A stretch of DNA of 38,125 nucleotides. Source: a bacterium (GTDB lineage: Bacteria > Planctomycetota > J058 > JAJDCP01). Position 1 is the stretch's first letter. Every line of letters begins with the position of its first letter. The position numbers and the translations under genes are program-made. The stretch lies in assembly GCA_030428695.1 (NCBI GenBank), contig JAUIEM010000032.1, positions 1 through 38,125 on the forward strand, given 5' to 3'. Positions 12,322-29,407 of the stretch are shown here, in pieces. Below the pieces are notes generated by a model. The model was not told where the DNA came from. It searched no databases and was given only the letters and a program-made list of their open reading frames with translations.

Positions 12322-15300
12322 CTACTCCGGCCACTCCGCCGGCGCGGCGCCGACCGCGTGGGCGGCGGCGCGCCGCTTGCGCTCCTCCTCCCTGCAGGCC
12401 TCCTCGTGCGCGCGCTGCTCCTCGACGAAGGCGCGCTCGTCCTCGATCAGGTCGGCTCCCGTGTAGAGCTCGAGGGCGCGGGCCCGGCGCAACAGGTCGA
12501 GCAGCACCCGGGCGTCCTGGGCGGGCGCGGACACGTCCGGGTAGCGCTGCATCAGCTCGAGGTACCAGGAGGCGAGCAGGCCGGACCAGGTCATCCAGGT
12601 GGTGCGCGACTGGCCCGCGAGCTGCTGGGCGAAGTAGAGGTTCTCGAGCTCGTAGCGGGGCGGCACGTCGCCCCGGTCGACCATCGGCACCAGCACGAGG
12701 GAGCCGAACACCTGCGGATCGTCGGGCGTCGCGTGCAGCGCGCTCAGCCGCCGGGTCAGCTCGGGACCGTCGACGCCCGGGAAGGCCAGCCTGCCGACCA
12801 CCTCCCCGGCCGCCCGCAGGCGGTCCCGCTCGCCGGGCAGCCGCCAGAAGGCCCACTCGACGAGGGAGTCCTGCAGCCAGGGCTCGAAGGAGGTGCCGAC
12901 GAAGGTCTCGGCTCCTTCCTCCCACAGCGCTTCGAACCAGAGCTGGCTGAGGGTGCGTTCGACGATCTGCTCGTCGACGCGGCTGCCCTCGAGCGCCGCC
13001 GCGGTGCGTTCGAGCAGCTCGTGCCACAGCTCCGGAGAGCGCTTGCCCGCGAGGCGACGGCGGAAGATCTCCGACTTCTGCGCGATGCCGGGGAAGCGGT
13101 ACGCGAGGCCGCTCAGCACGGGCTCGTGGGGACTGATCGGCGCGAACCCTCCCCACAGCGCCACGCGGCCGAGCCGGGCGACCGCCGTGTGGGGGTACTC
13201 GCGCATCGTGCTGCCGACGCCGAGCAGGTAGGTGCCGCGAGCCAGCGGGCGGGAGTCGCAGCTGAAGGCCGCGAGCAGCTCCCCGCTCTCCGCATCCGAC
13301 AGCACGACGCGCAGCCGCTCCTGCGCGGGCAGGTACTCGACCCCGGCGCGCACCCAGCGGCCCGTCATCGAGTCGACGCGCACCTCGCCGTGCCAGGCGC
13401 CGTGGGACAGGCTCCGCAGGCGCAGGGCGTTCAGGTTGTTCGTGCCGACGCAGGAGATCCGGAGGCCCTGGGTGATCTGCTCCCTGCCGCGCTCGAAGTC
13501 GGGGATGGAGAGCAGGCCGAGGTCGAAGTGGGAGCCCCAGTACGAGCCGAGCAGCTGGATCTCGCAGACCATGCGCCAGGCCCCGCCGTCGAAGCGCACG
13601 GGGACCCCGAACAGGTCGGCCGGCGTCGTCGGGAGCGCGTGGGCGTCGCCGTCGATCAGCCGCGCGATCGGCGGCAAGCGCGTGCTGAGGAAGCGGAAGG
13701 CGTCGTGCTCGGGGTCGTAGGACAGGGTGCGCGGCTCGCCGACCACCAGGGTCGCCGCCACGGGCTGTGATCCGTCCGGCGTGGAGAGCTCGAGGCCGCG
13801 CCAGTCGATCGAGGGCTCGTCGCCGAGCGGCGCCCAGCTGCGGGCGAGCAGTCCGAGGGTCGAGCGCTGCTGCGGGTCGAGGTCCGGGCCGCGGCGCCAG
13901 CGGTGGACCAGCGTCGTCAGCCGGGGGAGGGGGGTGCCGGCGGTGACGAGGGCGCTGATGGCCGGGGGCAGGAGGTCCGCCAGCGCGGCGGCCGGGACGG
14001 TCGCCTCGAGCCGCGCGAGCAGCCGCGTCGGGGCGTCCGCCGCGAGCAGGGCGCGCAGCTCCAGGCGCTGCAGCGCGGCCTCGAGGTCGCGCTCCGCGAC
14101 CCCTTCGTCGAGGGTCTCGCGCGCGACGCGGGCGGCCTCGGCAGGCAGCCCGAAGTCGTAGAGGAAGCGGACGAGGGTCAGCCGCTCGCTGTGGTCGCGG
14201 CGGGGCTCCTCGAGGGCGGGCCGGCGCGCGGCGAGCGCGACGAGGTCGGCGCGGGTGGCGCGGCGGAAGATCCCGTTCGCCGCGCACAGCCGCGGCCCCA
14301 GCTGCTCGATGTCCTCGTGCACGAGCGTCACCCCGGGGCTGAGCGCGCCGTCGGGGCCGATGCGGGTGAAGCAGGCCTGTCCGTGGCCCCCGTCGCGCAG
14401 GACGAGCAGGTCGCCGTCGACCAGCGGACGCTCATGGCGCGGGCCGAACAGCCGCGCGCGCTCGGCGAAAGGATGCTCGAACGGCGTGAGGCGCAGCTTC
14501 CCTTCCGGCATCCCGACCGACCACGCGCGGAGCTCGGGCGGGGTGTACCCGCGGATGCGGAAGAACGGCCAGAACTTCTCCGGCATGAAGGGGTCGATGA
14601 CCAGCCGCCGCCCGTCCCCGTCGGGCAGGGGGAGGAGGTAGGTCTTGCCGACCAGCTCCTCCCACACCAGGTGGAAGCGGCGCGCCTCGTCGAGGGCCCA
14701 GACTTCGAGATGGAAGTGGTTGAACTCGCCGAGGGCGATGACCAGCTCGCGGCGGCCGTCCCCGTTCAGGTCGTACATGTCGACGCCGGAGGGCCGGCTG
14801 TGGAAGCGCCGGATGTTCTCGCGCATCTCCGGCGGCACCCCGGCGGGCGTGCGCACCGGCTGCGGCCGACCCAGCTCGCCGTCGGCGTCGCAGAAGGAGA
14901 CCATGATCTCCGTCACCTGATTCCGCAGGGAGAAGATGATCAGGTCGCGCCGCCCGTCGCCATCGACGTCCCGGATGCGGGGCGCCGCGGGCTCAGGGCA
15001 GTCGAAGGCGTACAGCTCGACCTCCCCGTTGTCACGCAGGCTGAGGACGAGCAGCCCGTCCCTTCCCACCCGCACCACCGCCGAGAGCGATCCGGGCACG
15101 AACTCGCCGATCCATTCGAGCTGGACGTCGGCTTCCGGGTCGAAGCCGGCTCCAGCCAGCGCCGCCGACAGGGAGAGGCGCTCGCGCAGCAGACGCCAGT
15201 CAGCCTCCGCGGCGTCGAGGGCCTGCCCGTCGACGGAGAAGATCTCGAGGGCATCCTCCTCGATCCGCGCGTACAGCTCGAACGCGCCCCCGTCGTCGAG

Positions 15301-18285
15301 ATCGCCGAGGATGCCAGAGGCCTCGACCCGCACGCTGGTGCGGCGCAGCGCCTCGAGCCACAGCCCGGCCTCGAGCGCTCCGCCGGGGCCGCGCGACGCG
15401 AGCAGCGCCGGGCTCGGGCGGAAGTCGCCGTCGAAGGCCTGCAGGAGACAGCGCAGCGCGAGCTCGCGGTTGTCGCCCGCCAGGCCGAAGGGGTTCGTGC
15501 CCCGCCGTGGGAGCCGGGCGATCGCGCGCGCCAGGCCGTACCAGGCCGCGGCCTGCAGGGTAGGGGAGCGGTCGAAGGCGCGCAGGGCCTGGAGGAACTG
15601 GCGGCCGGCCCGGGCGTGCAGCTCTTCGGCGAGCGAGGCCTCGGCGAGGTCGAGGAAGCCGCGCCCGGCGGCCTCCGAGGAGGGCTGGGCGGTGTACGCC
15701 TCGGTCACCCAGAAGGCCTGCTCGACCGCGTCGCCCCGGGCCGCGGCGACGCGCGCCCGCCACAGGGCGAGCCGGGCGACGGCCAGCGAGTCGGCGAGCT
15801 GGCCTCGGGAGGCCGCGGGGGCGGGCTCTTCGAGGGGGCCGCGCTGGGTGAGCCGGCGGCGGAAGCGGCGGTAGCCCGCCTCGGCCCGGGCCAGGGCCGC
15901 CGAGTCCGCGGTCGCGGGAGGCGGCAGCCCGGCGTGCAGGGCGGCCGCCTCCCGCAGCAGCAGGGCGACCCGCAGGCTCTCGGCCCGCGCGGGCAGGGCC
16001 TGGGCAGCCAGCGCCACTGCGGGGCGGGCGTCGAGCAGGTCGTCGTTGTCGCCGACCCGCGCGATCTCGTCCGCGCGTTCGTAGGCGAACAGGGCGAGAG
16101 CCCGCTCCGCGGCCGCTCCCCCCGGTTCCGCCGCGGCGTCGAGGTCTACCGACAGCGACACGTACGCCGACTCGAGCGCGTCCAGCCCCGCCTCGCGCTG
16201 GCGGAGGGCGTCGGCCTCCGCGCTCCGGCGCGCGGACTCGGCAGCCATGCGCGCGCCGAAGAGCGCGCAGATCACGAGCACGATGCCGAGGGCCGCGAAG
16301 CGCACGCTCGTCCGGTTCCGGCGCGTCCAGCGCAGCAGCCGCTCGAGCCGCGTGTAGGAGTAGGCGCGGACCGTGCGGCCGTCGAGGAAGGCGCGCACCT
16401 CGTCCTGCAGCGCGCGCACGTCGCGGTAGCGCTGCTCCCGGTCGGGCGCCATCGCGCGCAGCACGATCGCCTCGAGCTCGTCGGGGACCCAGCGCTCCGG
16501 GGACTTCTCCGAGGGCGGGACGACGTCGCCCGCGAGCGCCTCTTCATAGGCGTCCTTGGGCGTCCGCGAGCGCGGCATGCGCAAGCAGACCATGTGGTAG
16601 AGGATCGCCCCGAGCGCGAACACGTCCGCCCGCTCGTCGAGGGTGCTCAGCTCCCCCCGGGCCTGCTCCGGGGGCATGTAGGCGACGGTCCCGAGCAGCC
16701 TGCCGTCCGAGATCTCGTCGTCTCCGGAGAGGCTGCAGTCGGTGACGACCCGCCCCTCGGTCCGATCCTCCGGCTGCTCGACCCCGGCGAGCCCCCAGTC
16801 GAGCACGAGGGCCTCGCCGAAGCGGCCGACCATCACGTTGGCTGGCTTGAGGTCGCGGTGCAGCACGCCCCGGCTGTGGGCGTACGAGATCGCGTCGCAG
16901 ATCTTCAGGAAGATGTGCAGCAGCCAGGTCAGCTCGCGCACCTGGCCCTGCTTGTCCCCGTCGACGCGGCCGCCCGGGACCACGTCGCGGAACAGGGTCG
17001 AGTCGTGGTCCGAGCCGGGGCCGGTGCTCTGGAAGTCGTCGAGCTGGCCGGGCCGCCGTCCGCGGCGGAGGTCGGAGAGGATCGAGTGCAGGCTGTCGCC
17101 CTCGACCTTCTTCATCACGATGAAGGGGCGGCCGTCGTCGTCGGTCGCCAGCTCGTGGATCGGGACGATGTTCGGATGCTCGAGCTGGCCGGTGATCTGC
17201 GCCTCGGCGATGAACAAGCGCTGGACGCGCGGGTTGCGGGACAGCGAGGTCTTGATCGCGACCTCCCGCCGCAGGTCGGAGTCGACCGCGCCCCACACCT
17301 CTCCCATGCCGCCCGCGCCGAGCCGGTCGCGGATGGCGAACTTCGGCTCCTCGCGGTGGGGCCCCTCCAGGTCGTCCTCTTCCTCTTCCTCTTCCTCCTC
17401 GTCGAACATCGCGAACGAGCCGGCGATCGAGCGCGCGCGCGACACGGACACCGGCGCGACCGGCCGGTGGAACGTGGTGTCGGGGGAGGAGGACGGGCCG
17501 AGCTCGGCCCGCAGGTACTCCTCGCAGACCTCGAGCAGCGCGTCGAGGGTGGGGCGCTTGCGCGGCTTCGGATGGAACAGCCGGCAGAGCACGCGCCACA
17601 GCGAGGGGAACATCCCGGACAGGCTCTCGCCGAAGCGCTCGAAGCGCTCTCGCGGCTCGCCGGGGGCCGGGGGGTAGAAGCGGGTCAGCATGTAGACGAG
17701 CAGGCTGCCGAGACCGTAGACGTCTGCCTCCGGGCTCGGGGGCTGCCCCTCGAGGCGCTCGGGCGCGGCGCACAGGCGGGCTTCGGTCGGCCGGCCGGGC
17801 GCGGTCGAGCCGAGCTCGAGCAGCGGAAAGGCGAAGTCGCCGAGCACCGCCCGGCCATCGTCGGCGAAGCGCACGCACGAGGGGCCGAGCGCCCCGTGGC
17901 TGACATCCTGGTGGTGGGCGGCGCGCATCGCCAGGGCGAGCTGATGGGTGACGGCGAGGGCGTCGATCAGCGGCAGGGCGCCGTCTTCGACGCGGCCTGC
18001 GAGGTTCGGACCGGGTAGGAGCTCCTCGGCCCACAGCTGCTCCGCGCCGTCCTCGAACAGGCCGTGGCCGACGATGATGTGCGGGTGGCCCAGCCGCTGC
18101 AGAGCCCAGGTCTGGGACCGGAACAGGGTCTGTTGGGCCTCGCTGAGGCGGAAGGCCGGGCGCAGCTCCTTCAGCGCGACGCTGCCGAGCTCGCGGTGCT
18201 CCGCCCGCCAGCAGACGCTGACCGGCCCTTCACCGAGCGGCTCGAGGTCGACGAAGCCGGCACGCGAGTCGGTCGCGGCGCTCAT
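12322..18285 (-). CDS. Giant pseudokinase - Ser/Thr kinase - membrane - FG-GAP - lectin-like fusion
   Basis: This is a 1987-residue receptor-like kinase. Residues about 12-258 form a kinase fold with VALK Lys39, but the catalytic loop reads VSHGALGPSCV, so the HRD Asp is Ala132 and the Asn is Cys137, and DFG is DFA (150-152): a pseudokinase. After an acidic run (294-306) comes a complete kinase (316-633) with GAGGMGEVW, Lys345, HRDLKPAN (476-483) and DWG (496-498) for DFG. A transmembrane helix lies at about 663-680. Beyond it are a helical region, FG-GAP/VCBS-like calcium motifs (DVDGDGRRDL about 1105, DLNGDGRREL about 1168) and a lectin/LamG-like beta domain (about 1540-1700). The start is ATG 18285, with AAGAGG upstream. 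The topology suggests the outside domains sense and the inside kinase signals; substrates are unknown. Confidence 0.9.
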   Translation of the reverse strand: MSAATDSRAGFVDLEPLGEGPVSVCWRAEHRELGSVALKELRPAFRLSEAQQTLFRSQTWALQRLGHPHIIVGHGLFEDGAEQLWAEELLPGPNLAGRVEDGALPLIDALAVTHQLALAMRAAHHQDVSHGALGPSCVRFADDGRAVLGDFAFPLLELGSTAPGRPTEARLCAAPERLEGQPPSPEADVYGLGSLLVYMLTRFYPPAPGEPRERFERFGESLSGMFPSLWRVLCRLFHPKPRKRPTLDALLEVCEEYLRAELGPSSSPDTTFHRPVAPVSVSRARSIAGSFAMFDEEEEEEEEDDLEGPHREEPKFAIRDRLGAGGMGEVWGAVDSDLRREVAIKTSLSRNPRVQRLFIAEAQITGQLEHPNIVPIHELATDDDGRPFIVMKKVEGDSLHSILSDLRRGRRPGQLDDFQSTGPGSDHDSTLFRDVVPGGRVDGDKQGQVRELTWLLHIFLKICDAISYAHSRGVLHRDLKPANVMVGRFGEALVLDWGLAGVEQPEDRTEGRVVTDCSLSGDDEISDGRLLGTVAYMPPEQARGELSTLDERADVFALGAILYHMVCLRMPRSRTPKDAYEEALAGDVVPPSEKSPERWVPDELEAIVLRAMAPDREQRYRDVRALQDEVRAFLDGRTVRAYSYTRLERLLRWTRRNRTSVRFAALGIVLVICALFGARMAAESARRSAEADALRQREAGLDALESAYVSLSVDLDAAAEPGGAAAERALALFAYERADEIARVGDNDDLLDARPAVALAAQALPARAESLRVALLLREAAALHAGLPPPATADSAALARAEAGYRRFRRRLTQRGPLEEPAPAASRGQLADSLAVARLALWRARVAAARGDAVEQAFWVTEAYTAQPSSEAAGRGFLDLAEASLAEELHARAGRQFLQALRAFDRSPTLQAAAWYGLARAIARLPRRGTNPFGLAGDNRELALRCLLQAFDGDFRPSPALLASRGPGGALEAGLWLEALRRTSVRVEASGILGDLDDGGAFELYARIEEDALEIFSVDGQALDAAEADWRLLRERLSLSAALAGAGFDPEADVQLEWIGEFVPGSLSAVVRVGRDGLLVLSLRDNGEVELYAFDCPEPAAPRIRDVDGDGRRDLIIFSLRNQVTEIMVSFCDADGELGRPQPVRTPAGVPPEMRENIRRFHSRPSGVDMYDLNGDGRRELVIALGEFNHFHLEVWALDEARRFHLVWEELVGKTYLLPLPDGDGRRLVIDPFMPEKFWPFFRIRGYTPPELRAWSVGMPEGKLRLTPFEHPFAERARLFGPRHERPLVDGDLLVLRDGGHGQACFTRIGPDGALSPGVTLVHEDIEQLGPRLCAANGIFRRATRADLVALAARRPALEEPRRDHSERLTLVRFLYDFGLPAEAARVARETLDEGVAERDLEAALQRLELRALLAADAPTRLLARLEATVPAAALADLLPPAISALVTAGTPLPRLTTLVHRWRRGPDLDPQQRSTLGLLARSWAPLGDEPSIDWRGLELSTPDGSQPVAATLVVGEPRTLSYDPEHDAFRFLSTRLPPIARLIDGDAHALPTTPADLFGVPVRFDGGAWRMVCEIQLLGSYWGSHFDLGLLSIPDFERGREQITQGLRISCVGTNNLNALRLRSLSHGAWHGEVRVDSMTGRWVRAGVEYLPAQERLRVVLSDAESGELLAAFSCDSRPLARGTYLLGVGSTMREYPHTAVARLGRVALWGGFAPISPHEPVLSGLAYRFPGIAQKSEIFRRRLAGKRSPELWHELLERTAAALEGSRVDEQIVERTLSQLWFEALWEEGAETFVGTSFEPWLQDSLVEWAFWRLPGERDRLRAAGEVVGRLAFPGVDGPELTRRLSALHATPDDPQVFGSLVLVPMVDRGDVPPRYELENLYFAQQLAGQSRTTWMTWSGLLASWYLELMQRYPDVSAPAQDARVLLDLLRRARALELYTGADLIEDERAFVEEQRAHEEACREEERKRRAAAHAVGAAPAEWPE

Positions 18286-18435: not shown

Positions 18436-18534
18436 TCGGGATGTTCCGCCGCACGAAGGTCGTCAGCCGGCGCTCGACGCTCGGGCCGCGCGGGCGGCTG
18501 CGGTGCCAGCGCGCTCGACCTCCGCTCGCAAGCG

Positions 18535-18563
18535 TTGCAGCCGGGCCGCCCAGGCGGTACCGT
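18535..18563 (+). promoter_or_regulatory. Sigma70 promoter of the DUF3050 gene
   Basis: TTGCAG (18535-18540), 17 bases, TACCGT (18558-18563), 52 bases before the chosen GTG at 18615. Confidence 0.65.
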
Positions 18564-18614
18564 GACCGCCCGTCGCGGTGGCGGGACACTCAACCCCGGG
18601 GCGTGGAGGCCGAC

Positions 18615-19394
18615 GTGTCACGACTTCCCTCGTCCGCGCTCGTCGAGGACGGCTACCAGCAGCTCTTAGCCGCTCTCGGGGCGGCGCGCGCGGCGCTTCT
18701 CTCCCACCCGGTCTACGGCGCCGTCGCCGACCTCCCGCGGCTGCGGATCTTCATGCGCTCGCACGTGTTCGCTGTGTGGGACTTCATGAGCCTGCTCAAG
18801 ACCCTGCAGCGCCGCCTGACCTGCGTGACCGCGCCCTGGTTCCCGCCGGAAGATCGCGTCGCGGCGCGGCTGATCAACGAGATCGTGCTCGCCGAGGAGA
18901 GCGACGAGCTCGCCCCGGGGGTGTTCGCGAGCCACTTCGAGCTGTACATCGAGGCGATGGACGAGCTCGGCGCCGATGCCGGGCCGGTGCTCGCGCTGCT
19001 CACCGGGCTGCGCGCGGGCGAGCCGGTCGAGGTGGTGCTCGCGCGGCTCGCCGTGCCGGAGCAGACGCGGCGCTTCGTCGCGACCACCCTCGCGACCTGC
19101 GCCCGGCCGGTCGAGGAGGTCGCGGCCTCGTTCCTGCTCGGACGGGAGGACCTGATCCCGGACATGTTCGAGCGCCTCCTGCCCGCCCTGCCCGCGGGGC
19201 GCCTGCGGCTGTACGTCGAGCGGCACATCGCGCTCGACGGCGACTCCCACGGCCCCCTGGGCGCGCAGCTCCTGCGCCGGCTGTGTGGCGAGGATCCCGA
19301 CCGCTGGGCGGCCGCGACGGCGCGCGCCCGGCAGGCGATCGCCGCCCGGCACGCGCTGTGGGACGGGGTGGTCCAGGCCATCGGCGGGGTCTGA
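18615..19394 (+). CDS. DUF3050 family protein, heme-oxygenase-like helical fold
   Basis: The 259-residue protein carries the DUF3050 hallmark: HPVYGAV, LRIFMRSHVFAVWDFMSLLKTLQRRLTC, then RLINEIVLAEESDELAPG. The many conserved His/Glu residues (SHVFAVWDFM, LINEIVLAEESDE, later RHIALDGDSHGP) resemble the metal-binding helices of the heme-oxygenase-like superfamily, so a metal-dependent oxidase role is possible. That function is inference; the family is uncharacterised. The start is GTG 18615, chosen because GGAGG (18605-18609) is five bases upstream and the length fits the family. The longer reading frame from ATG 18441 overlaps the promoter. It is a single gene ahead of pcnB. Confidence 0.85.
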   Translation: MSRLPSSALVEDGYQQLLAALGAARAALLSHPVYGAVADLPRLRIFMRSHVFAVWDFMSLLKTLQRRLTCVTAPWFPPEDRVAARLINEIVLAEESDELAPGVFASHFELYIEAMDELGADAGPVLALLTGLRAGEPVEVVLARLAVPEQTRRFVATTLATCARPVEEVAASFLLGREDLIPDMFERLLPALPAGRLRLYVERHIALDGDSHGPLGAQLLRRLCGEDPDRWAAATARARQAIAARHALWDGVVQAIGGV

Positions 19395-19504: not shown

Positions 19505-19586
19505 CCGTGTAGACCTGCCCTTTTCCCACCCGATCCGCCCCTTTCGGGGTGAGCACCTGCGAACGTTGAGGGAGTCCGGGAGCTCC

Positions 19587-21137
19587 ATGGCTGTGACACC
19601 CGTCGTCTGGCGTCATCCCGACATTTCCACCCGCGATCTCGATCGAGACTCCCTGAAGATCATCCAACGCCTGCGGCGCTTCGGGTACCAGCCGTATTAC
19701 GCCGGCGGTTGCGTGCGGGACATCCTGCTCGGGCACAAGCCGAACGACTTCGACATCGTGTCGGACGCGCGCCCCGAGGAGGTGCGCAAGGTCTTCCGCA
19801 ACTGCCGGGTGATCGGGCGGCGCTTCCGGCTCGCGCATATCCACTTCTACGGCAAGATCATCGAGGTCTCGACCTTCCGGGCGAAGGAGCACGGGGACGG
19901 CCAGGACGACGACGGCTACCTGCGCAACCAGAACACCTACGGGACGCCCGACGAGGACGCGCACAACCGCGACTTCACGATCAACGGCCTGTTCTTCGAC
20001 CCGGTCGCCGACGAGATCGTCGACTACGTCGGCGGACTCCGCGACCTGCACGCCGGCCTGGTGCGCACGATCGGCGAGCCTGAGCGGCGCTTCCGCGAGG
20101 ATCCCGTGCGCATGCTGCGGGCGATCAAGTACGCAGGGCGCCTCGACCTGACGATCGAGAAGGACACCGCGCGGGCGCTCGGCGACTGCCGGGTCGACCT
20201 CGAGAAGTGCAGCCGGGCGCGGCTGCTCGACGAGATCCTCAAGCTCGTGCGCGGACCGGCCTGCGACGAGGTCTTCCTGCGCCTGCTCGAGTCCGGCATC
20301 CTCGACGTGCTGTCGCCGACCCTCGCCGGCTTCCTGGCGGTGTCATCTGCTGAAGAGGAACGCTTCTGGCTGCTGCTCGGGGGCCTGGCGGCGGTCGCGC
20401 GCGGGCGGCGCAACGACATGCACCACGCGGTGCTGCTCGCCTGCCTCTTCCATCCCTTCCTCTCCCGGGCCTGGGAGCGCGCCGCGCTGCTCGACGGCCG
20501 GCCGAACCAGGCGATGCTGATCCGGCAGTCCGCGAAGCTGCTCGGCGGCTTCGCCGAGAAGTTCGCCCTGCCGCGCAAGCTGTCGCTGACCCTGCGCCAG
20601 GTCTGTTCGATGCAGCACATCCTCGAGCAGTGCCTGCGGTCGCCGAAGCGCCTCGCGCGCCGCGAGGGCTTCCGCGAGGCCCTGCGCTTCCTCGAGCTGC
20701 GCGCGTCGGTCGGGGACGTCGATGCGGAGGTGCTCAAGCCCTTCAAACGCTGGCTCGACGAGCCGCTCCTGCCCAAGCGGAGGGCGCACCAGGCGCGTCC
20801 CGCAGCGCGGCCCCGACGCCACAGCGAGGCCCTGCGGCGGGCGGCCGAGGCATCGCGGGCGCACCACGCCCCGGTGTCGGAAGATGGTGCGCCCGAGCCC
20901 GAGGTCGCGGCGGTCGAAGAAGACATCGCGACGGTCGAGGAAGAGGTTGCGGCCGTCGCGGAAGAGGTCGAGGCCGTCGCGGAAGAAGTCGAGGCCGTCG
21001 CGGAAGAAGTCGAGGCCGGGGAAGAGCTCGCCGCGCCCGAGGAGGAAGCGGTCGCGCAGGAGCCGACGCGGCGCGCCGAGCCGGCGCGGCGGGAGTCGCG
21101 CAGCGCGGTCGACGAGTGGTTCGCGGACATCCTCTAG
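19587..21137 (+). CDS. pcnB: PcnB-type poly(A) polymerase / tRNA nucleotidyltransferase family protein with acidic tail
   Basis: The 516-residue protein adds nucleotides to RNA 3' ends. The nucleotidyltransferase head shows GGCVRDILLG (40-49), NDFDIVSD with Asp54 and Asp56, VIGRRFRLAHI (75-85) and RDFTINGLFFDP, followed by the RNA-binding neck (EPERRFREDPVRMLRAIKYA). The GRRF.L.H element is typical of bacterial poly(A) polymerase I rather than CCA-adding enzymes, and there is no HD domain. Residues about 410-505 are an extra tail: Arg/Ala-rich, then Glu/Val/Ala repeats (452-477), ending SAVDEWFADIL. ATG 19587 has GGGAG just upstream. Poly(A) versus CCA activity cannot be decided with certainty. 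It converges on the methyltransferase gene at 21206. Confidence 0.88.
   Translation: MAVTPVVWRHPDISTRDLDRDSLKIIQRLRRFGYQPYYAGGCVRDILLGHKPNDFDIVSDARPEEVRKVFRNCRVIGRRFRLAHIHFYGKIIEVSTFRAKEHGDGQDDDGYLRNQNTYGTPDEDAHNRDFTINGLFFDPVADEIVDYVGGLRDLHAGLVRTIGEPERRFREDPVRMLRAIKYAGRLDLTIEKDTARALGDCRVDLEKCSRARLLDEILKLVRGPACDEVFLRLLESGILDVLSPTLAGFLAVSSAEEERFWLLLGGLAAVARGRRNDMHHAVLLACLFHPFLSRAWERAALLDGRPNQAMLIRQSAKLLGGFAEKFALPRKLSLTLRQVCSMQHILEQCLRSPKRLARREGFREALRFLELRASVGDVDAEVLKPFKRWLDEPLLPKRRAHQARPAARPRRHSEALRRAAEASRAHHAPVSEDGAPEPEVAAVEEDIATVEEEVAAVAEEVEAVAEEVEAVAEEVEAGEELAAPEEEAVAQEPTRRAEPARRESRSAVDEWFADIL
20940..21017 (+). repeat. 21-bp in-frame tandem repeat in the pcnB tail
   Basis: Units at 20940-20960, 20961-20981 and 20982-21002, plus a partial unit at 21003-21017, each encode EE(V)(E/A)AVA. 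Units two and three differ by one base, a sign of recent slippage expansion. Confidence 0.85.
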
Positions 21138-21205: not shown

Positions 21206-21964
21206 TCAGCGGCGGAGCTCGAGGAAGAAGTCGAGACCCCGGGCGAAGCTCCGGCTCAGGCGGAACCAGCGCCGCCGCCGGTCCGCCTCGGTGACCGCGC
21301 GCTCCGGGCGATGCAGCGCGCGCAGCAGCCGGCCGCGCACGCGCCCCCGCAGGCCCGCCCAGGTGCGGGGCGCGCGCAGCCTCTCGACGGCCTGGGCCCC
21401 GTGCAGGCCGATCACGCCGTACAGGGAGCGGCGCGGGATACCCGCCTTCCGGCAGAAGCTCCGCAGGGTGTCCGGGCGCAGCTCGAAGACGTGGAAGGGG
21501 TTCGGGGGCGGTTGCCCCGGGAACGTCCGCCAGCGTGCGTTGGGCGTGGTCAGGAAGGCGCGCCCGCCGGGACGCAGCACCCGCCGCAGCTCGACCGTCA
21601 GGCGCACGGCGTCGACGAGCGGGAAGTGCTCGAGCAGCTGGAACGCGGTCACGACGTCGAAGCTGCGCGCGGCGAAGGGCAGCCGCAGGGCGTCCGCCTG
21701 CACCCGGGCGAGGCCCGGCCTGGGCGGGAGGTCGCCGAGGGCGCGGCGCGACAGGTCGAGGGCGACGACCGTGCGGCCCGGCCCCCGGAGCAGCCCGAGG
21801 GCGTAGCCGAGCCCGCAGCCGACGTCGAGCCAGCGGCTGCCTCGCGGCGCGCGGGAGGCGGCGGCGCGGTAGGCGAACAGATGACGGCGGAACAGGATGT
21901 AGTCGCGCAGGCGCGCCTCCGCGTCCGGCGCGGTGACCCGCCAGGTGTCGTCGACGGTCTGCAT
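21206..21964 (-). CDS. Class I SAM-dependent methyltransferase
   Basis: The 252-residue protein has the Rossmann-type SAM fold: WLDVGCGLGYALG (45-57, motif I), VVALDLSRRAL with the ribose-binding acidic residue, VQADALRLPFAARSFDVVTAFQLLEHFP (motifs II-III) and LRRVLRPGGRAFLTTPNA, as in the Methyltransf_11 group. The C-terminal 80 residues are Arg-rich and not part of the core. ATG 21964 shares its A with the TGA of the upstream phosphodiesterase (TGATG), so it is almost certainly translated by termination-reinitiation. The substrate is unknown. TTPNA.W and the later FELRPDTLRSFCRKAG resemble methyltransferases of surface-glycan clusters, but no glycan genes adjoin. Confidence 0.85.
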   Translation of the reverse strand: MQTVDDTWRVTAPDAEARLRDYILFRRHLFAYRAAASRAPRGSRWLDVGCGLGYALGLLRGPGRTVVALDLSRRALGDLPPRPGLARVQADALRLPFAARSFDVVTAFQLLEHFPLVDAVRLTVELRRVLRPGGRAFLTTPNARWRTFPGQPPPNPFHVFELRPDTLRSFCRKAGIPRRSLYGVIGLHGAQAVERLRAPRTWAGLRGRVRGRLLRALHRPERAVTEADRRRRWFRLSRSFARGLDFFLELRR

Positions 21965-22533
21965 CAGGCCGCGGGGGACCAGCGCTCCCCGGTCTCGCAG
22001 TCGACGTGCCAGAGGTCGATCGCGCCGTCGGGGGAGAGCGTCAGGACGCCGAGGGTGATCGGCAGCTGGAAGCGCCGGGGGCCGACCGAGCCGGGGTTGA
22101 AGACGTAGAGCCCGCGGTCCTTCGCGATCAAGGGCACGTGGGAGTGGCCGCACACCACCAGCTGCGCGCCGTGGCGGCGGGCCCGCGTGGCCGCGTCCTT
22201 GCGCAGGCGGGGCCCGTAGACCGCGATGTGCAGGAGCAGCAGCCGCAGCACCCGGGCGCCGTCCGGCGCGAGGAAGTCGAGCAGGATCGAGTCCGGCCGA
22301 GCGTTCCCGTCGATGTTGCCGCGCACCGCGAAGGTCGGCCGCAGCTCCTCGAGCTCGTCGATCACGTCGTCGCGGCCGATGTCCCCGGCGTGCAGGAGCA
22401 GCGCCGGGTCGAGCGCGGCGATGCGAGCGGGCAGGGCGGGATGGGGCGCGCTGTGGGTGTCGGCGACGATGCCGACGCGCAGGCCCGCGGCGGGCACGGG
22501 GACGGTCGCGGCGGTGTGTTTCCAGCGTGGCAT
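21964..22533 (-). CDS. YfcE/MJ0936-type metallophosphoesterase
   Basis: This 189-residue calcineurin-like phosphoesterase is of the small bacterial phosphodiesterase class. Metal ligands visible are Asp25 and His27 (VADTHSAPH), Asp51 (LLHAGDIG), Asn73 (VRGNIDG, where family members usually have GNCD or GNHD), His102 (LLLHIAVYG) and GHSH (129-132), then the typical [10 protein letters not shown] end. The start is ATG 22533, with GGAGG eight bases upstream. The gene is first of a two-gene unit with the methyltransferase. The physiological substrate of this class is generally unsettled. Confidence 0.9.
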
Positions 22534-22554
22534 GCGGCGAACCTCCGGACGCGC

Positions 22555-22583
22555 AGGATGCGCGATGAGGGCGCGCGGGGCAA
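22555..22583 (-). promoter_or_regulatory. Candidate promoter of the phosphoesterase-methyltransferase unit
   Basis: Minus strand: TTGCCC (22583-22578), 17 bases, CATCCT (22560-22555), 22 bases before the ATG. The -10 departs from TAnnnT at its first base. Confidence 0.5.
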
Positions 22584-22700
22584 GGGCGGGGTGGGTCGCG
22601 GGATGAGCGCGGTGGCAGGGGGGCGGGTGAAGAGCGGATCGGGTCTTGACGTGCGGGGGCGCCCAGAGACCGCGAAACTCAGGTCGTTCGGCGACAGACA

Positions 22701-22762
22701 GGCCTCCGGGCGCCCGGCAGGGCGCAACACCGGCCTCCGGGCGCCCGGCAGGGCGCAACACC
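22701..22762. repeat. 31-bp exact tandem duplication with a 12-bp palindrome in each copy
   Basis: Copies at 22701-22731 and 22732-22762 are identical. Each contains CCGGGCGCCCGG, first at 22706-22717, and ends in GCGCAACACC, with AACAC following the second copy. It lies at the left edge of the foldback region. Confidence 0.9.
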
Positions 22763-22795
22763 AACACAGGACCGTTCCAGAGGACCAGGTTGCCC

Positions 22796-22887
22796 TCCAA
22801 AGCTGGAGACAGCTCCGGGCCATGGACGACATTCCGCGTGCAGGTGCTCCCCCCGGAGCTGGCTCCAGCTTTGGACGGTCATTTTTT
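22796..22887 (+). terminator. 24-bp stem hairpin followed by a T run
   Basis: The arms 22796-22819 and 22852-22875 pair with one mismatch around a 32-base loop. Six Ts follow at 22882-22887. The stem is far longer than most intrinsic terminators and no plus-strand gene ends nearby, so it may instead be part of the foldback element. Confidence 0.35.
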
Positions 22888-23169
22888 CGGGCAACCTGCG
22901 TCCGACAGGGTTGTGCCCGACAAGTTGATGAAGTGGAACCCCCCACCGGGGGGCAGGGGGGGTATAGCATGCACGCCATCCCCCGAACGGGCAATCGTGG
23001 CCGCCAACCTCGGAGCGGGCTTGCGGACGCGAAAAACCGATCGGGTTCGCGTCCGGGGCAAGCACCGTGGCGCACACCGGTCCCCGGGGAACGAGGTGTT
23101 TGTTGGCTTGTTGATGCCCCCCTGTGAGTCCCCCGGTGGGGGACCACCGTGTAGCGAGCAACATTGTCG

Positions 23170-23280
23170 GAGGTTGGGCGACCATCGCCCTGATTGCGCC
23201 ACCTCCTCGATCTCCTCTCCTCGTACCTCGGAGAAGAGATCTGCGGTGGTGTCGCAAACAGGGCTGCCGCCCAACTCCTC
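23170..23280. repeat. Long imperfect hairpin, arms about 50 bp
   Basis: The outer pair is GTTGGGCG (23173-23180) / CGCCCAAC (23268-23275). The middle pair is 23187-23203 with 23245-23264 (GCCCTG..TTGCG..CCACC conserved), and the inner pair GATCTC (23209-23214) / GAGATC (23236-23241). The tip, TCCTCGTACCTCGGAG, recurs with one change in the next hairpin at 23301-23333. Confidence 0.8.
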
Positions 23281-23300
23281 TTGTGTAGCCTGCAGCCCTT

Positions 23301-23333
23301 GACCCTCGCTCCTCGTTCCTCGGAGCGTGGGTC
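23301..23333. repeat. 12-bp hairpin sharing its tip with the preceding long hairpin
   Basis: GACCCTCGCTCC (23301-23312) pairs with GGAGCGTGGGTC (23322-23333), with one mismatch. The loop region TCCTCGTTCCTCGGAG repeats the tip of the 23170-23280 hairpin. Confidence 0.75.
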
Positions 23334-23467
23334 GGCGGGAACGTGTGCCACGGTCGTGCGACAATCCCGATCGAACCTTCCCATAGCGCGCGCGTCCCCG
23401 TCGGGAATGATCCTCCCCCCGGGCGCTCCCGGCCGGTAGACTCGGGCTCCCAGCGAGGAGGAGCGCG

Positions 23468-24244
23468 ATGCGGCGCCGGCATGTCTTCGAGTTCGTCGAT
23501 CAACCCTGGTTGCCCGAAGTGTTGCGCGAGGGCTCGCTCGAGGTGCTGTCGCTCGCGCTCTCGCGCGGGGTGTACGACGGCGTCGCGCCGGCCTTCGAGC
23601 GCTTCCTGCTGCGCACCGGCGCGGAGCGGCTGCTCGACCTCGGCAGTGGCGGTGGAGGCCCGACCCGCGCGCTGCTGGAGAGCTACGCCGCCGCGGGACG
23701 AACCCCGCCCCGGGTGGTGCTGTCCGACCTGTTCCCCAACCTCGCCGCCTTCGAGCGCGCGGCGGCGGAGGATCCGCGGGTGGAGTTCTGCGCGGAGCCG
23801 GTCTCGGCGGCCGAGGTGCCCCCCGAGCACGCCGCGCTGCCGCGGCTCCTGTGCACCGTCTTCCACCACTTCCCGCCCGCGCTCGCCCAGCAGGTGCTCA
23901 GCGACGCGGCGGCGCGCGCCCCCGGGATCTTCATCGTCGAGCCCCTCGAGCGCAATCCCCTGCGCTACCTGCCGATGATCGTGCGGGGGCTGCCCTCGTT
24001 CGTCGAGAGTCCCTTCCGGAGCCCGCGGCAGCGCCTGGCCAAGGCCTTCTTCAGCTTCGTGCTGCCGCTGATTCCGGCTGTCCTGGCCTGGGATGGGACG
24101 GTCAGCGCCCTGCGCATGTACAGCGAGGAGGAGCTGATGGCGATGGCGGCGCGCACCGGCGCCGAGGACTACGACTGGGAGTACGGCACCGCGCCCTTCG
24201 CCCCCCTCGGGCGGGTGACCTGGTTCGCGGGCGTGCGGCGCTGA
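23468..24244 (+). CDS. SAM-dependent methyltransferase-like protein
   Basis: The 258-residue protein has a methyltransferase core: LLDLGSGGGGPTRALLE (motif I), RVVLSDLFPNL (acidic end of strand 2), then RLLCTVFHHFPPALAQQVL and GIFIVEPLERNPLRYL. The N-terminus FEFVDQPWLPEVLREGSLEVL precedes the fold. A hydrophobic stretch, AFFSFVLPLIPAVLAW (about 195-210), may be membrane-associated, and the protein ends GRVTWFAGVRR. The substrate is unknown. ATG 23468 follows a strong GAGGAGGAG site. A TAGACT box (23437-23442) lies 25 bases upstream without a good -35. It is read away from the foldback region. Confidence 0.8.
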   Translation: MRRRHVFEFVDQPWLPEVLREGSLEVLSLALSRGVYDGVAPAFERFLLRTGAERLLDLGSGGGGPTRALLESYAAAGRTPPRVVLSDLFPNLAAFERAAAEDPRVEFCAEPVSAAEVPPEHAALPRLLCTVFHHFPPALAQQVLSDAAARAPGIFIVEPLERNPLRYLPMIVRGLPSFVESPFRSPRQRLAKAFFSFVLPLIPAVLAWDGTVSALRMYSEEELMAMAARTGAEDYDWEYGTAPFAPLGRVTWFAGVRR

Positions 24245-26496: not shown

Positions 26497-27435
26497 ATGG
26501 CCGACGCCGTCGTCCTCGAGAACGTGACCAAGCGCTTCGCCGGCTTCACCGCCGTCGATGGCCTGAGCCTGGCGGTGCCGCGCTCGTGCATCTACGGCTT
26601 CATCGGGCCGAACGGCTCGGGGAAGACGACGACGATGCGGATGATCATGCGCCTGTACCTGCCCGACGCCGGCGCGATCACCGTGCTCGGCAAGCAGGGT
26701 GAGCGGGCGGCGGACGATCGGGTCGGCTACCTGCCCGAGGAGCGCGGGCTGTACAAAAAGATGAAGGTCGGCGAGATCCTGCGCTTCTTCGCCGGCCTCA
26801 AGGGACGCAGCGACCCGCAACAGGCGATGCGTCGCTGGCTCGAGCGGCTCGAGCTGGCCGCCTGGGAGCACAAGAAGGTCGAGACCTTGTCGAAGGGCAT
26901 GGCGCGGAAGCTGCAGTTCATCGCCGCGGTGATCGCCGAGCCGCAGCTGGTGATCCTCGACGAGCCCTTCAGCGGCCTCGACCCGGTCGCCAGCGAGGTG
27001 CTGCGCGAGGCGGTGCTCGACCTCAAGCGCCAGGGCACGACGGTGATCCTGTCGACCCATGACATGGAGGTCGCCGAGAAGATGTGCGACGCGATCTTCA
27101 TGATCTACCGCGGCAAGAAGGTGCTCGACGGCAGCTTCGAGGCGATCTCCGACCGCTACGGCGCGGACACCGTGCGGGTGCGGCTCGGCGAGCAGGGCGT
27201 GGAGCTCTCCGCCCTCGACGGCGTCGAGGCGGTGCGCGACTACGGGCGCTTCCAGGAGCTGCGGCTGGCGGAGGGCACCGATCCCCAGGCGCTGCTGCGC
27301 AGCCTGCTCGAGCGCGGGACGGTGCGCCACTTCGAGCTCGCCCGGCCGACGCTGCGCGACATCTTCGTGCGCATCGCCCAACCCGAGGCCGCGGAGCTGG
27401 CGGCGGGCGCCTCCCCGGCAGGAGGTGGATCATGA
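26497..27435 (+). CDS. ABC transporter ATP-binding protein, NatA-like
   Basis: This 312-residue ATPase energises the following permease. Walker A GPNGSGKT (37-44), Q-loop region YLPEERGLYKKM (79-90), signature LSKGM (131-135, typical of the NatA subgroup instead of LSGGQ), Walker B LVILDEP (151-157) and switch histidine STHDM are all present. It has a C-terminal extension (about 220-312) as in NatA-type proteins. ATG 26497 has AAGGAG (26484-26489) seven bases upstream. The stop overlaps the permease ATG by four bases. A role in sodium or drug efflux is known for relatives; here the substrate is open. Confidence 0.93.
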   Translation: MADAVVLENVTKRFAGFTAVDGLSLAVPRSCIYGFIGPNGSGKTTTMRMIMRLYLPDAGAITVLGKQGERAADDRVGYLPEERGLYKKMKVGEILRFFAGLKGRSDPQQAMRRWLERLELAAWEHKKVETLSKGMARKLQFIAAVIAEPQLVILDEPFSGLDPVASEVLREAVLDLKRQGTTVILSTHDMEVAEKMCDAIFMIYRGKKVLDGSFEAISDRYGADTVRVRLGEQGVELSALDGVEAVRDYGRFQELRLAEGTDPQALLRSLLERGTVRHFELARPTLRDIFVRIAQPEAAELAAGASPAGGGS

Positions 27436-28781
27436 GGAAGGCGCTCGTCATCGCCCGGCGCGAGTTCATCGCGACCGTGCGCACGAAGATCTTCATCCTG
27501 TCGATTGTGCTGATGCCGGTGCTGATGGCGGGCGGCCTGATCGCCGAGGTGCTGTTCCGCGAGTTTCGCGACCTCGACGACCGCACCGTCGCCGTGATCG
27601 ACCGCACGGCGGCGGAGGGCGTGCCGGCGGGCATGCTGCGGGCGGCGCTCGAGGCGGCCGCGACGCAGCGCAACGAGGAGGAGATCTACACCGATCCTTT
27701 CGGTATCACCCTGTCGAGCGAGAAGAAGCAGCGCCGCCCGCGCTTCGTCGTCGAGGCGGTCGAGGCGCCGGGGGGCGACTCGGTCGCGCTGGCCGAGACC
27801 CGCGTCGCGCTGTCGGAGAGGGTGCGCAACAAGGAGCTGTTCGCCTTCGTCGAGATCGAGCCGGGGGCCCTCGAGGGGGCGGGGGCGATCTACTTCTTCT
27901 CGGACAACATCGCCGACGACGCGCTGCGCGGCTGGACCCAGCGCACCCTCGACGCCGCGATCCGCGCCTGGCGCGTCGAGCGCACCGGCCTGCCGCCGGA
28001 CACGCTGGCCTGGGCGACCGCGCCGAACGTCGTCGCCCTGCGCGGGCTGTCGTCGAAGAGCGCCAGCGGGGAGATCTCCGAGACCGCGACCGAGGCGAAC
28101 GTCGCGCGCATGATCAGCGCTCTGGTGATGCTCGGGCTGATCTTCTTCAGCGTGATGTTCGCGACGATGCCGCTGGTGCACAGCACGGTCGAGGAGAAGA
28201 TGCAGCGCATCGCCGAGGTCCTGCTCGGCTCGATCCCGCCCTTCCAGCTGATGCTCGGGAAGCTGCTCGGGGCGGTCGCGGTCTCCCTGGTCATCGTCAG
28301 CCTGTACCTCGGCGGGGCGGTCGTCGTCGCGCTGCAGTTCGGCTACGGGGACGTGATCGGGGCGGCGCGGCTGGTCTGGTTTTTTCTCTTCCTGGTGCTC
28401 GCGGTGACGATGTTCGGCGCCCTGCTGCTCGCCCTCGGCTCGGCGGTCAGCGACATGAAGGAGGCGCAGAGCGCGGTGATGCCGGTCTCGATCCTGATGA
28501 GCCTGCCGGCCTTCGTCGTCGGTCCGGTGCTGCAGGCCCCCGACGGCACGCTCTCCCTGGTGCTCTCGCTGTTTCCCCTGACCGCGCCGACCATCATGAC
28601 GATGCGCCTCGGCCTCGACCCCGGTATGCCCCTCTGGCAGCCGCTGGTCGCCGTGCTCGGGGCGCTCGCGACCACGCTGTTCGCGGTCTGGGCGGCCGGG
28701 CGCATCTTCCGGGTCGGCATGCTGATGACCGGGAAGCGCCCGAGCTACAAGGAGATGCTGCGCTGGATCGCGTCGGCCTAG
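27432..28781 (+). CDS. ABC-2 type permease, NatB-like
   Basis: The 449-residue permease has one N-terminal helix (IFILSIVLMPVLMAGGLIAEV), a large external domain (about 45-225), and five or six C-terminal helices from about 230. EEKMQRIAEVLLGSIPPFQLMLGKLLG, next to the second helix, matches the coupling-helix motif of NatB/ABC-2 exporters (EEKxxRxxEVLLxSxxPxxLMxGKxLG). ATG 27432 overlaps the ATPase stop (ATGA) and uses GGAGGT (27421-27426) inside the ATPase gene. One ATPase plus one permease implies a homodimeric transporter. The N-terminal RREF motif is typical of the family. Confidence 0.9.
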   Translation: MRKALVIARREFIATVRTKIFILSIVLMPVLMAGGLIAEVLFREFRDLDDRTVAVIDRTAAEGVPAGMLRAALEAAATQRNEEEIYTDPFGITLSSEKKQRRPRFVVEAVEAPGGDSVALAETRVALSERVRNKELFAFVEIEPGALEGAGAIYFFSDNIADDALRGWTQRTLDAAIRAWRVERTGLPPDTLAWATAPNVVALRGLSSKSASGEISETATEANVARMISALVMLGLIFFSVMFATMPLVHSTVEEKMQRIAEVLLGSIPPFQLMLGKLLGAVAVSLVIVSLYLGGAVVVALQFGYGDVIGAARLVWFFLFLVLAVTMFGALLLALGSAVSDMKEAQSAVMPVSILMSLPAFVVGPVLQAPDGTLSLVLSLFPLTAPTIMTMRLGLDPGMPLWQPLVAVLGALATTLFAVWAAGRIFRVGMLMTGKRPSYKEMLRWIASA

Positions 28782-29407
28782 AACGCCCCCGCCTGCTCGT
28801 ATTCCTGCGCTATCCTCGCCCGGGGCGGGCGAAGACGCGGCTGATCCCGCTGCTCGGCGCGGAGGGTGCCTGCGCCGCCTACCGCTGGATGGCGGCCCGC
28901 CTGCTCGCCCAGGTCGAGGCGCCGGCCTGGGACACCCGCGCCCTCGTCCATCCGCCTGCCGACCTGGCCGCGGCGCGAGACTGGCTGGAGCGAGAGGCCT
29001 TCCCCCAGGCGCCGGGAGACCTCGGCGCGAAGCTGACGGCGGCCTTCGCGGACGCGTTCGCCGCGGGGGCGCCGGCCGCGATCGCGATCGGCAGCGACTG
29101 CCTGGGGGTCGACCGGACGCTGCTGGCGCGGGCCTTCGCGCGGCTGGAGAGCGCGGACGCGGTGCTCGCGCCGGCGCGCGACGGCGGCTACACGCTGCTC
29201 GGTCTGGCCCGGCCGCTGCCCGAGGTGTTCCGCGCGATCCCCTGGAGCAGCCCGGACACCTGCGCGGTCACGCGGCGACGCCTGGCGACCGTGGGGGCGC
29301 GCTGGTCCGAGCTCGAGATGATGGATGACATCGACACGCCGGAAGACTTCCGGGAGGCGGTCGCGCGCTGGCCGGAGCTCGCGCGCTTCCTGCCTCCCGG
29401 GGCGTGA
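28763..29407 (+). CDS. DUF2064/TIGR04282-type glycosyltransferase-like protein
   Basis: About 214 residues of the nucleotidyltransferase-like GT-A fold. The signature RPRLLVFLRYPRPGRAKTRL is at the N-terminus, followed by GSDCLGVDRTLLARAF, DGGYTLLGLARPL and DDIDTPEDF, as in the family. No ATG, GTG or TTG lies near the conserved start. CTG at 28763, with AAGGAG (28749-28754) eight bases upstream inside the permease gene, is the best candidate; CTG 28793 is an alternative. The start is therefore uncertain by about ten codons, though the frame is secure. The gene closes the transporter operon and stops seven bases before the convergent pilin stop. The biochemical role of this family is poorly known. 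Confidence 0.8.
   Translation: MDRVGLERPRLLVFLRYPRPGRAKTRLIPLLGAEGACAAYRWMAARLLAQVEAPAWDTRALVHPPADLAAARDWLEREAFPQAPGDLGAKLTAAFADAFAAGAPAAIAIGSDCLGVDRTLLARAFARLESADAVLAPARDGGYTLLGLARPLPEVFRAIPWSSPDTCAVTRRRLATVGARWSELEMMDDIDTPEDFREAVARWPELARFLPPGA

What the first reader, a model, noticed from the sequence alone, without database searches (positions are those of the whole stretch)
22637..23372. Large nested foldback element without a gene
About 730 bases between divergent genes contain at least seven long inverted repeats, several nested around 23040 (outer 22917/23159, then 22939/23117, 23003/23092, 23019/23046, core CCGATCGG), flanked by a 24-bp-stem hairpin on the left and a roughly 50-bp-arm hairpin on the right. 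Such layered pairing is not expected by chance even at high GC. It could be a non-autonomous foldback transposon (MITE-like), a recombination or replication site, or a large structured RNA not matching RNase P, tmRNA or SRP RNA.
Basis: partly seen in the sequence, partly recalled or inferred. Interest (0 to 1): 0.72.

Follow-up and report, generated by a model that had tools for sequence, protein, structure and literature searches.

The report
Palindrome-packed DNA between two genes
A 736-base stretch between two ordinary bacterial genes folds back on itself far more than chance allows on both DNA strands, so it looks more like a cluster of DNA palindromes than a known type of RNA gene, but no second copy could be found to show what it does.

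Summary
Window 22637-23372, between a YfcE-like phosphoesterase gene (-) and a methyltransferase-like gene (+), is a dense set of inverted repeats: fold energy z = -9.8 (+ strand) and -8.4 (- strand) against 200 dinucleotide shuffles per strand; flanks near zero. It matches no Rfam family in the sensitive mode, a mode that finds a real ROOL RNA in a control. Nine stretches of known RNA fold less extremely, their antisense strands much less so; an E. coli palindrome cluster is as strong on both strands as this element. The standardised strand difference does not separate the two kinds. My best reading is a foldback or palindrome-mosaic insertion present at DNA level (0.42), ahead of a lineage-specific structured RNA (0.34). 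No convincing target duplication was seen. DNA of the probable phylum (Planctomycetota) could not be searched, so mobility, conservation and transcription remain untested.

The parts
22637..23372 (.). Whole foldback element, bounded by a 7-bp closing pairing GATCGGG/CCCGATC (22637-22643 / 23366-23372)
   Evidence: z -9.8 (+) / -8.4 (-), 200 shuffles each; closing helix p>0.9 on +. A 7-bp match alone is weak, so the exact ends are uncertain.
22701..22762 (.). Perfect tandem duplication of a 31-bp unit containing the palindrome CCGGGCGCCCGG
   Evidence: Tandem Repeats Finder, 100% match, 2.0 copies; the repeat finder D1 and I6
22786..22898 (.). Long left hairpin: helices 22786-22795/22889-22898 (10 bp), 22796-22808/22863-22875 (13 bp), 22810-22818/22853-22861 (9 bp)
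   Evidence: 22780-22905 z -7.6 (+) / -7.5 (-), 300 shuffles
22882..22887 (+). TTTTTT in the bulge of the left hairpin; one of two T6 runs on the + strand of the window (the other at 28380). Could be the T-tract of a weak intrinsic terminator on +, but none was called.
   Evidence: positions; scan negative
22919..23168 (.). Nested central domain: 22919-22927/23159-23168 (9 pairs, one bulged base), 22940-22953/23129-23142, 22958-22964/23115-23121, 23003-23006/23068-23071, 23024-23031/23048-23055
   Evidence: pair probabilities >0.9 on +; 22900-23180 z -4.9 (+) / -3.7 (-), 300 shuffles
23037..23044 (.). Palindrome CCGATCGG inside the innermost hairpin (occurs once more in the window, at 38091)
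   Evidence: sequence
23169..23278 (.). Long right rod hairpin interrupted by mismatches and small loops
   Evidence: helices found on both strands; 23160-23290 z -7.2 (+) / -7.8 (-), 300 shuffles
23209..23241 (.). Hairpin hp1 (tip of the right rod): 12-position stem, 11 Watson-Crick pairs and one C-A mismatch, 9-nt loop TCGTACCTC
23301..23333 (.). Hairpin hp2: 12-position stem, 11 Watson-Crick pairs and one T-T mismatch, 9-nt loop TCGTTCCTC; look-alike of hp1, three stem pairs changed on both sides with pairing kept
21964..22533 (-). Left neighbour: YfcE-like metallophosphoesterase gene (context; the name YfcE is recalled)
   Evidence: Pfam Metallophos_2 PF12850, E 4.6e-27
23468..24244 (+). 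Right neighbour: methyltransferase-like gene (context)
   Evidence: weak Pfam Methyltransf_25, E 2.7e-4, 22 bits, below the cut-off of 27; 170 proteins at E<=1e-3 including the window's own, some named SAM-dependent methyltransferase

Best explanation
A palindrome-mosaic (foldback) insertion of about 736 bp whose inverted repeats exist and act at DNA level. When the DNA is single-stranded (replication, supercoil-driven extrusion, or transfer), either strand folds into several rod hairpins around a nested core. Like REP clusters or ssDNA-handled non-autonomous elements, it would be recognised through its hairpins, with any mobility supplied in trans. Shown: the inverted repeats, their great strength on both strands, sharp limits, and the perfect 31-bp tandem duplication inside. 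Inferred: that it is an insertion, that it can move, and that hairpin recognition is how.
For: Both strands fold far beyond shuffles: z -9.8/-8.4 (200 shuffles) and -11.2/-10.5 (60 shuffles). 126 of 261 pairs of the + fold are the same pairs in the - fold, 120 of 200 in the core 22780-23340. 16 of 261 + pairs (6%) are G-U, against 11% (sd 1.5%) in 60 shuffles. Controls: eight pieces of E. coli tmRNA, RNase P, 16S and 23S give z on the RNA strand -0.66 to -3.17 and on the antisense strand +0.15 to -1.52, shared pairs 5-35%, G-U 12-17%; the ROOL-bearing stretch gives -4.6/-3.0, 75 of 281 shared, 14% G-U. The E. coli gltP-yjcO intergenic palindrome cluster gives -16.1/-12.3, 116 of 220 shared, 9% G-U, closest to the element. 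The element lies between flanks of 103 and 95 bp to the two divergent start codons and is less G+C-rich (66%) than the contig (71%).
Against: The standardised + minus - energy difference of the element (-1.67; about -1.3) lies within the range of the nine RNA controls (-0.31 to -2.58) and the palindrome cluster has -1.08, so this measure does not speak for DNA. The shared-pair fraction of 48% is reached by shuffles of the element (mean 21%, sd 12%, maximum 50% of 60). One of six ordinary window stretches had only 4% G-U. The RNA controls are less G+C-rich. No second copy: own contig, plasmids and phages (at E<=10 only short matches in 35 plasmid records, 8% of the query or less in the 20 rows listed), IMG/VR by four patterns, 200 genomes of G001's phylum (1 of 200 with a 43-nt match, E 1.3e-4 for one genome, read as chance). 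No convincing target duplication with terminal repeats. No transposase family among the 19 chosen ORF products scanned with Pfam. Its palindromes are mostly unlike each other and carry no GTAG or CGTC tag next to a hairpin. A closing stem with several branches is also what a structured RNA would show.
Confidence: 0.42

Rival explanations
1. A lineage-specific large structured noncoding RNA of about 740 nt, strand unknown, with a closing stem, two rods and a nested core.
For: Fold far beyond shuffles. The + strand is better by 11.3 kcal/mol, a standardised difference like that of known RNAs. Hairpins hp1 and hp2 keep a 9-nt loop (8 of 9 identical) and keep pairing while three of twelve stem pairs differ on both sides. 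Limits coincide with intergenic space.
Against: That difference is only 1.3 to 1.7 sd. Wobble pairs that extend helices common to both strands are 3 on + and 5 on -, the - ones including one inside hp1, so they do not point to one strand. No Rfam match in sensitive mode although that mode finds ROOL. No promoter-like or terminator-like site was called in 22400-23600 (a sigma-70-type scan only). The antisense strand folds far better than that of any RNA control. hp1/hp2 pairing could also be kept by quasi-palindrome correction in DNA (recalled mechanism).
Confidence: 0.34
2. A cis-acting leader or terminator cluster: the hairpins end or slow transcription between the two divergent units or protect an mRNA end.
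For: Intergenic position; T6 run behind the left hairpin; REPs are hypothesised to act in transcription termination and mRNA stabilisation (PMC3733652, abstract start and passages).
Against: The two genes diverge, so their 3' ends point away. No terminator-like site met the scan. 736 bp with nested long-range arms is far more than a terminator needs. An 11-nt complementarity to the start of the methyltransferase-like gene is not unusual: 20 of 744 overlapping window tiles have one of 11-12 nt.
Confidence: 0.13
3. A cluster of remnants of an old insertion sequence or retroelement, no longer functional.
For: No recognisable gene inside; one perfect, so probably recent, tandem duplication beside diverged palindromes.
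Against: Near-perfect long arms are expected to decay; spurious frames gave no homologue (a chimera of two frames only); no intron family match in Rfam.
Confidence: 0.08

Closest known systems
REP / BIME palindrome clusters (E. coli gltP-yjcO cluster as control; that it is a REP cluster is recalled)
   Same: Intergenic; strong fold on both strands, about half of the pairs shared, few G-U. Tagged REPs are reported from Planctomycetes (PMC3733652, abstract passage).
   Different: No GTAG or CGTC tag next to a hairpin; palindromes mostly unlike each other; nested long-range arms; no high copy number shown.
Bacterial MITEs / non-autonomous foldback elements
   Same: Non-coding, several hundred bp, inverted repeats, intergenic.
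   Different: No convincing terminal repeat plus target duplication; no second copy found in what could be searched; several separate hairpins instead of one.
Ornate large RNAs (ROOL, GOLLD, OLE; PMC12286853, passages seen)
   Same: Size class (ROOL match 543 nt; many GOLLD over 800 nt), multi-branched fold, a palindrome that could kiss another copy (inference).
   Different: No Rfam match (ROOL found as control); much stronger fold on both strands and poorer in G-U than the ROOL stretch; no tRNA in the window, whereas ROOL and GOLLD are often near tRNA islands of phages.

Membership tests
REP / BIME | 20-40 bp palindromes in many copies per genome | tested here: inconclusive
   Two look-alike hairpins and one tandem 31-bp pair within the 38-kb contig; rest of the genome not held.
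REP / BIME | GTAG or CGTC tag at one end of the hairpin | tested here: not met
   8 tag occurrences on both strands (2 GTAG, 6 CGTC); 0 of 8 directly followed (0-2 nt) by a perfect hairpin of 5-13 bp; imperfect stems were not tried. Feature from PMC3733652.
MITE / non-autonomous insertion | Terminal inverted repeats flanked by target duplication | tested here: inconclusive
   274 direct-repeat placements of 4-10 bp within wide limits; of the 10 best and the 8 of 7 bp or more that were printed, none joins a long duplication to good terminal repeats; nearest to the closing stem is GATCG at 22642/23368 with 7 of 12 terminal matches. No shuffle control was run.
MITE / non-autonomous insertion | Several dispersed copies | tested here: inconclusive
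ROOL / GOLLD / OLE and other Rfam RNAs | Match to the covariance model | tested here: not met
   No match beyond chance in 22500-23500 in 'evalue' mode (5 matches at E<=10, best E 0.12, 23.9 bits against a cut-off of 100); control ROOL found at E 2.6e-28.
Group I / II introns, RNase P, tmRNA, SRP RNA | Match to the Rfam models; tmRNA by ARAGORN | tested here: not met
   (one RNaseP-T line at E 2.7, 13.5 bits against 60, read as chance)
Integron attC site | RYYYAAC ... GTTRRRY in that order (consensus recalled) | tested here: not met
   One of each on each strand but in the reverse order; 0 ordered pairs at 45-170 nt
Novel structured RNA | Transcription and covariation across relatives | not testable with these tools
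   No genome held; the genome-contig scan gave one distant locus; no RNA-seq tool

The most novel reading that the evidence does not exclude
A previously undescribed large structured RNA of an uncultured, probably Planctomycetota lineage. It would have two rod domains, a nested core whose palindrome CCGATCGG could pair with a second molecule (a dimer or higher assembly), and two look-alike stem-loops with a shared 9-nt loop as a repeated binding site.
Probability: 0.2. Interest if true: 0.72.

Novelty: new variant of a known kind. Interest (0 to 1): 0.4.

Why it matters
If it is a mobile palindrome mosaic, it would add a large type made of unlike palindromes to the known bacterial foldback elements. 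Tagged REPs are reported from Planctomycetes (PMC3733652); the seven paper searches made here (open-licence papers, listings only) showed no title or abstract start describing an element like this one. If it is an RNA, it would join a handful of very large bacterial RNAs. A method point: comparing both strands' folds with known RNAs and a palindrome cluster says more than fold energy alone, though no single measure used here decides between them.

Tried and rejected
Chance pairing: rejected. Known RNA families: rejected; the fast 'gathering' mode is not enough, because it missed a ROOL that the 'evalue' mode found. attC order and REP tags: not met. Kissing of the hp2 loop with 23086-23094 (noted): dropped, since 161 of 728 nine-mers of the element have such a partner, and 89 of 800 in mononucleotide shuffles. 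Antisense pairing with the methyltransferase start: dropped. Protein search with spurious frames: 377 candidates, none at E<=10. Tblastn of two window proteins against plasmids, meant to find plasmids of kin: only matches under 60% identity; nothing followed. Papers: search listings with abstract starts, plus passages of PMC5643018, PMC12286853, PMC1590033 and PMC3733652; none read in full.

Full report
WHAT IS THERE. The region lies between a YfcE-like phosphoesterase gene (21964-22533, -) and a methyltransferase-like gene (23468-24244, +). Between 22637 and 23372 the sequence is a dense set of inverted repeats: a left hairpin of 32 pairs with a bulge holding TTTTTT, a nested central domain from 22919 to 23168, a right rod of 23169-23278, a further hairpin at 23301-23333, and a 7-bp pairing of the two ends. 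A 31-bp unit is perfectly duplicated in tandem at 22701-22762.

CHANCE. Against 200 dinucleotide shuffles per strand the whole element has z = -9.8 (+) and -8.4 (-), and no shuffle came near. In a scan of 120-nt windows over 22381-23700, values of -3 or below on the + strand occur only in windows starting between 22651 and 23251; 92 + strand tiles elsewhere in the contig have mean -0.19, sd 1.0, minimum -3.26. DNA energy parameters give the same picture (z -12.5, 20 shuffles).

RNA OR DNA? I compared the element with known objects by one procedure. Eight pieces of E. coli structured RNA (tmRNA, RNase P, two of 16S, four of 23S) give z from -0.66 to -3.17 on the RNA strand and from +0.15 to -1.52 on the other; 5-35% of pairs are shared between strands; G-U is 12-17% (60 shuffles each). 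The 839-nt intergenic stretch holding the ROOL RNA of L. salivarius gives -4.6 and -3.0, 75 of 281 shared pairs, 14% G-U. The E. coli gltP-yjcO palindrome cluster gives -16.1 and -12.3, 116 of 220 shared, 9% (50 shuffles). The element gives -11.2 and -10.5, 126 of 261, 6%. Six ordinary 737-nt stretches of the window give z between +1.6 and -1.2, G-U 4-14%, and 6 of 249 to 89 of 259 shared pairs. The very strong fold of BOTH strands sets the element with the palindrome cluster.

WHAT SPEAKS AGAINST THAT. The + strand is better by 11.3 kcal/mol, a standardised difference of -1.3 to -1.67; the nine RNA controls range from -0.31 to -2.58 and the palindrome cluster has -1.08, so this measure does not separate them. 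Shuffles of the element share 21% of pairs on average (sd 12%) and one reaches 50%, so 48% is high but not outside. The low G-U share (6% against 11%, sd 1.5%, in shuffles) is undercut by one ordinary stretch with 4%. The controls are less G+C-rich. Two hairpins, hp1 and hp2, share a 9-nt loop (8 of 9) and the four closing pairs, while three of twelve stem pairs differ on both sides with pairing kept; each stem has one mismatch. This is what selection on a stem-loop gives, but quasi-palindrome correction in DNA (recalled) could give it too. Wobble pairs extending common helices are 3 on + and 5 on -.

KNOWN FAMILIES. Rfam in the sensitive mode finds nothing above chance in 22500-23500. The same mode finds ROOL in a control at 130 bits, while the fast mode misses it, so the fast whole-window negative alone would not count. 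ARAGORN finds no tRNA or tmRNA in the window. attC order is not met, and 0 of 8 REP tags have a perfect hairpin behind them. Of 274 possible target duplications, the 18 rows printed (10 best, 8 of 7 bp or more, with overlap) include none that is convincing.

RELATIVES. None accepted. Plasmids and phages by blastn at 1e-5: none; plasmids at E<=10: 35 records with short matches, 8% of the query or less in the 20 rows listed, lowest E among these 0.06. IMG/VR by four exact patterns: two found nothing, two gave four stretches each, read as chance. 200 genomes of the phylum of G001 (a Gammaproteobacteria MAG by its title): 1 of 200, a 43-nt match read as chance. Own contig: no other copy. A protein search with a chimera of two spurious frames: none of 377 candidates. 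The contig is probably from Planctomycetota: the three rows with an organism name among the 120 listed homologues of the ABC ATPase are Planctomycetes, Gemmataceae and Fimbriiglobus. Named homologues of the methyltransferase are Myxococcota genera and families, Bdellovibrionota and Gemmatimonadota, so this is not certain. No genome is held for the window, and the one genome-contig scan gave a single locus of 36% identity. The absence of copies therefore says little about its own lineage.

VERDICT. A real, unusually large palindrome-mosaic element; most likely a DNA foldback insertion (0.42), next a lineage-specific structured RNA (0.34). Mobility, transcription and conservation are untested.

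Noticed in passing
L014 37800-39200: Rfam search in 'gathering' mode reported nothing here although the ROOL match scores 130.4 bits, above its gathering score of 99.1, in 'evalue' mode. Negative results of the fast mode for large RNAs should be rechecked.
   Followed up: yes
window 20901-21018: 21-bp coding tandem repeat (5.6 copies) giving an acidic EVEAVAE-type tail on the poly(A) polymerase-like protein (19581-21137).
   Followed up: no
window 12322-18285 (-) and 33428-36214 (+): Two large ORF products (1987 and 928 aa) with protein kinase domains; the longer also has FG-GAP matches below the curated cut-off.
   Followed up: no
window 18441-19394: DUF3050 protein (Pfam E 9e-83), with a match below cut-off to Haem_oxygenas_2.
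   Followed up: no
whole window: GTAG occurs 206 times against 95 expected from shuffles; probably codon use (CTAC for Tyr, untested), not a tag.
   Followed up: partly
window 27425-29407: 660-aa ORF product with a C-terminal DUF2064 domain (497-609); the rest matches no Pfam family at E<=1e-3.
   Followed up: no
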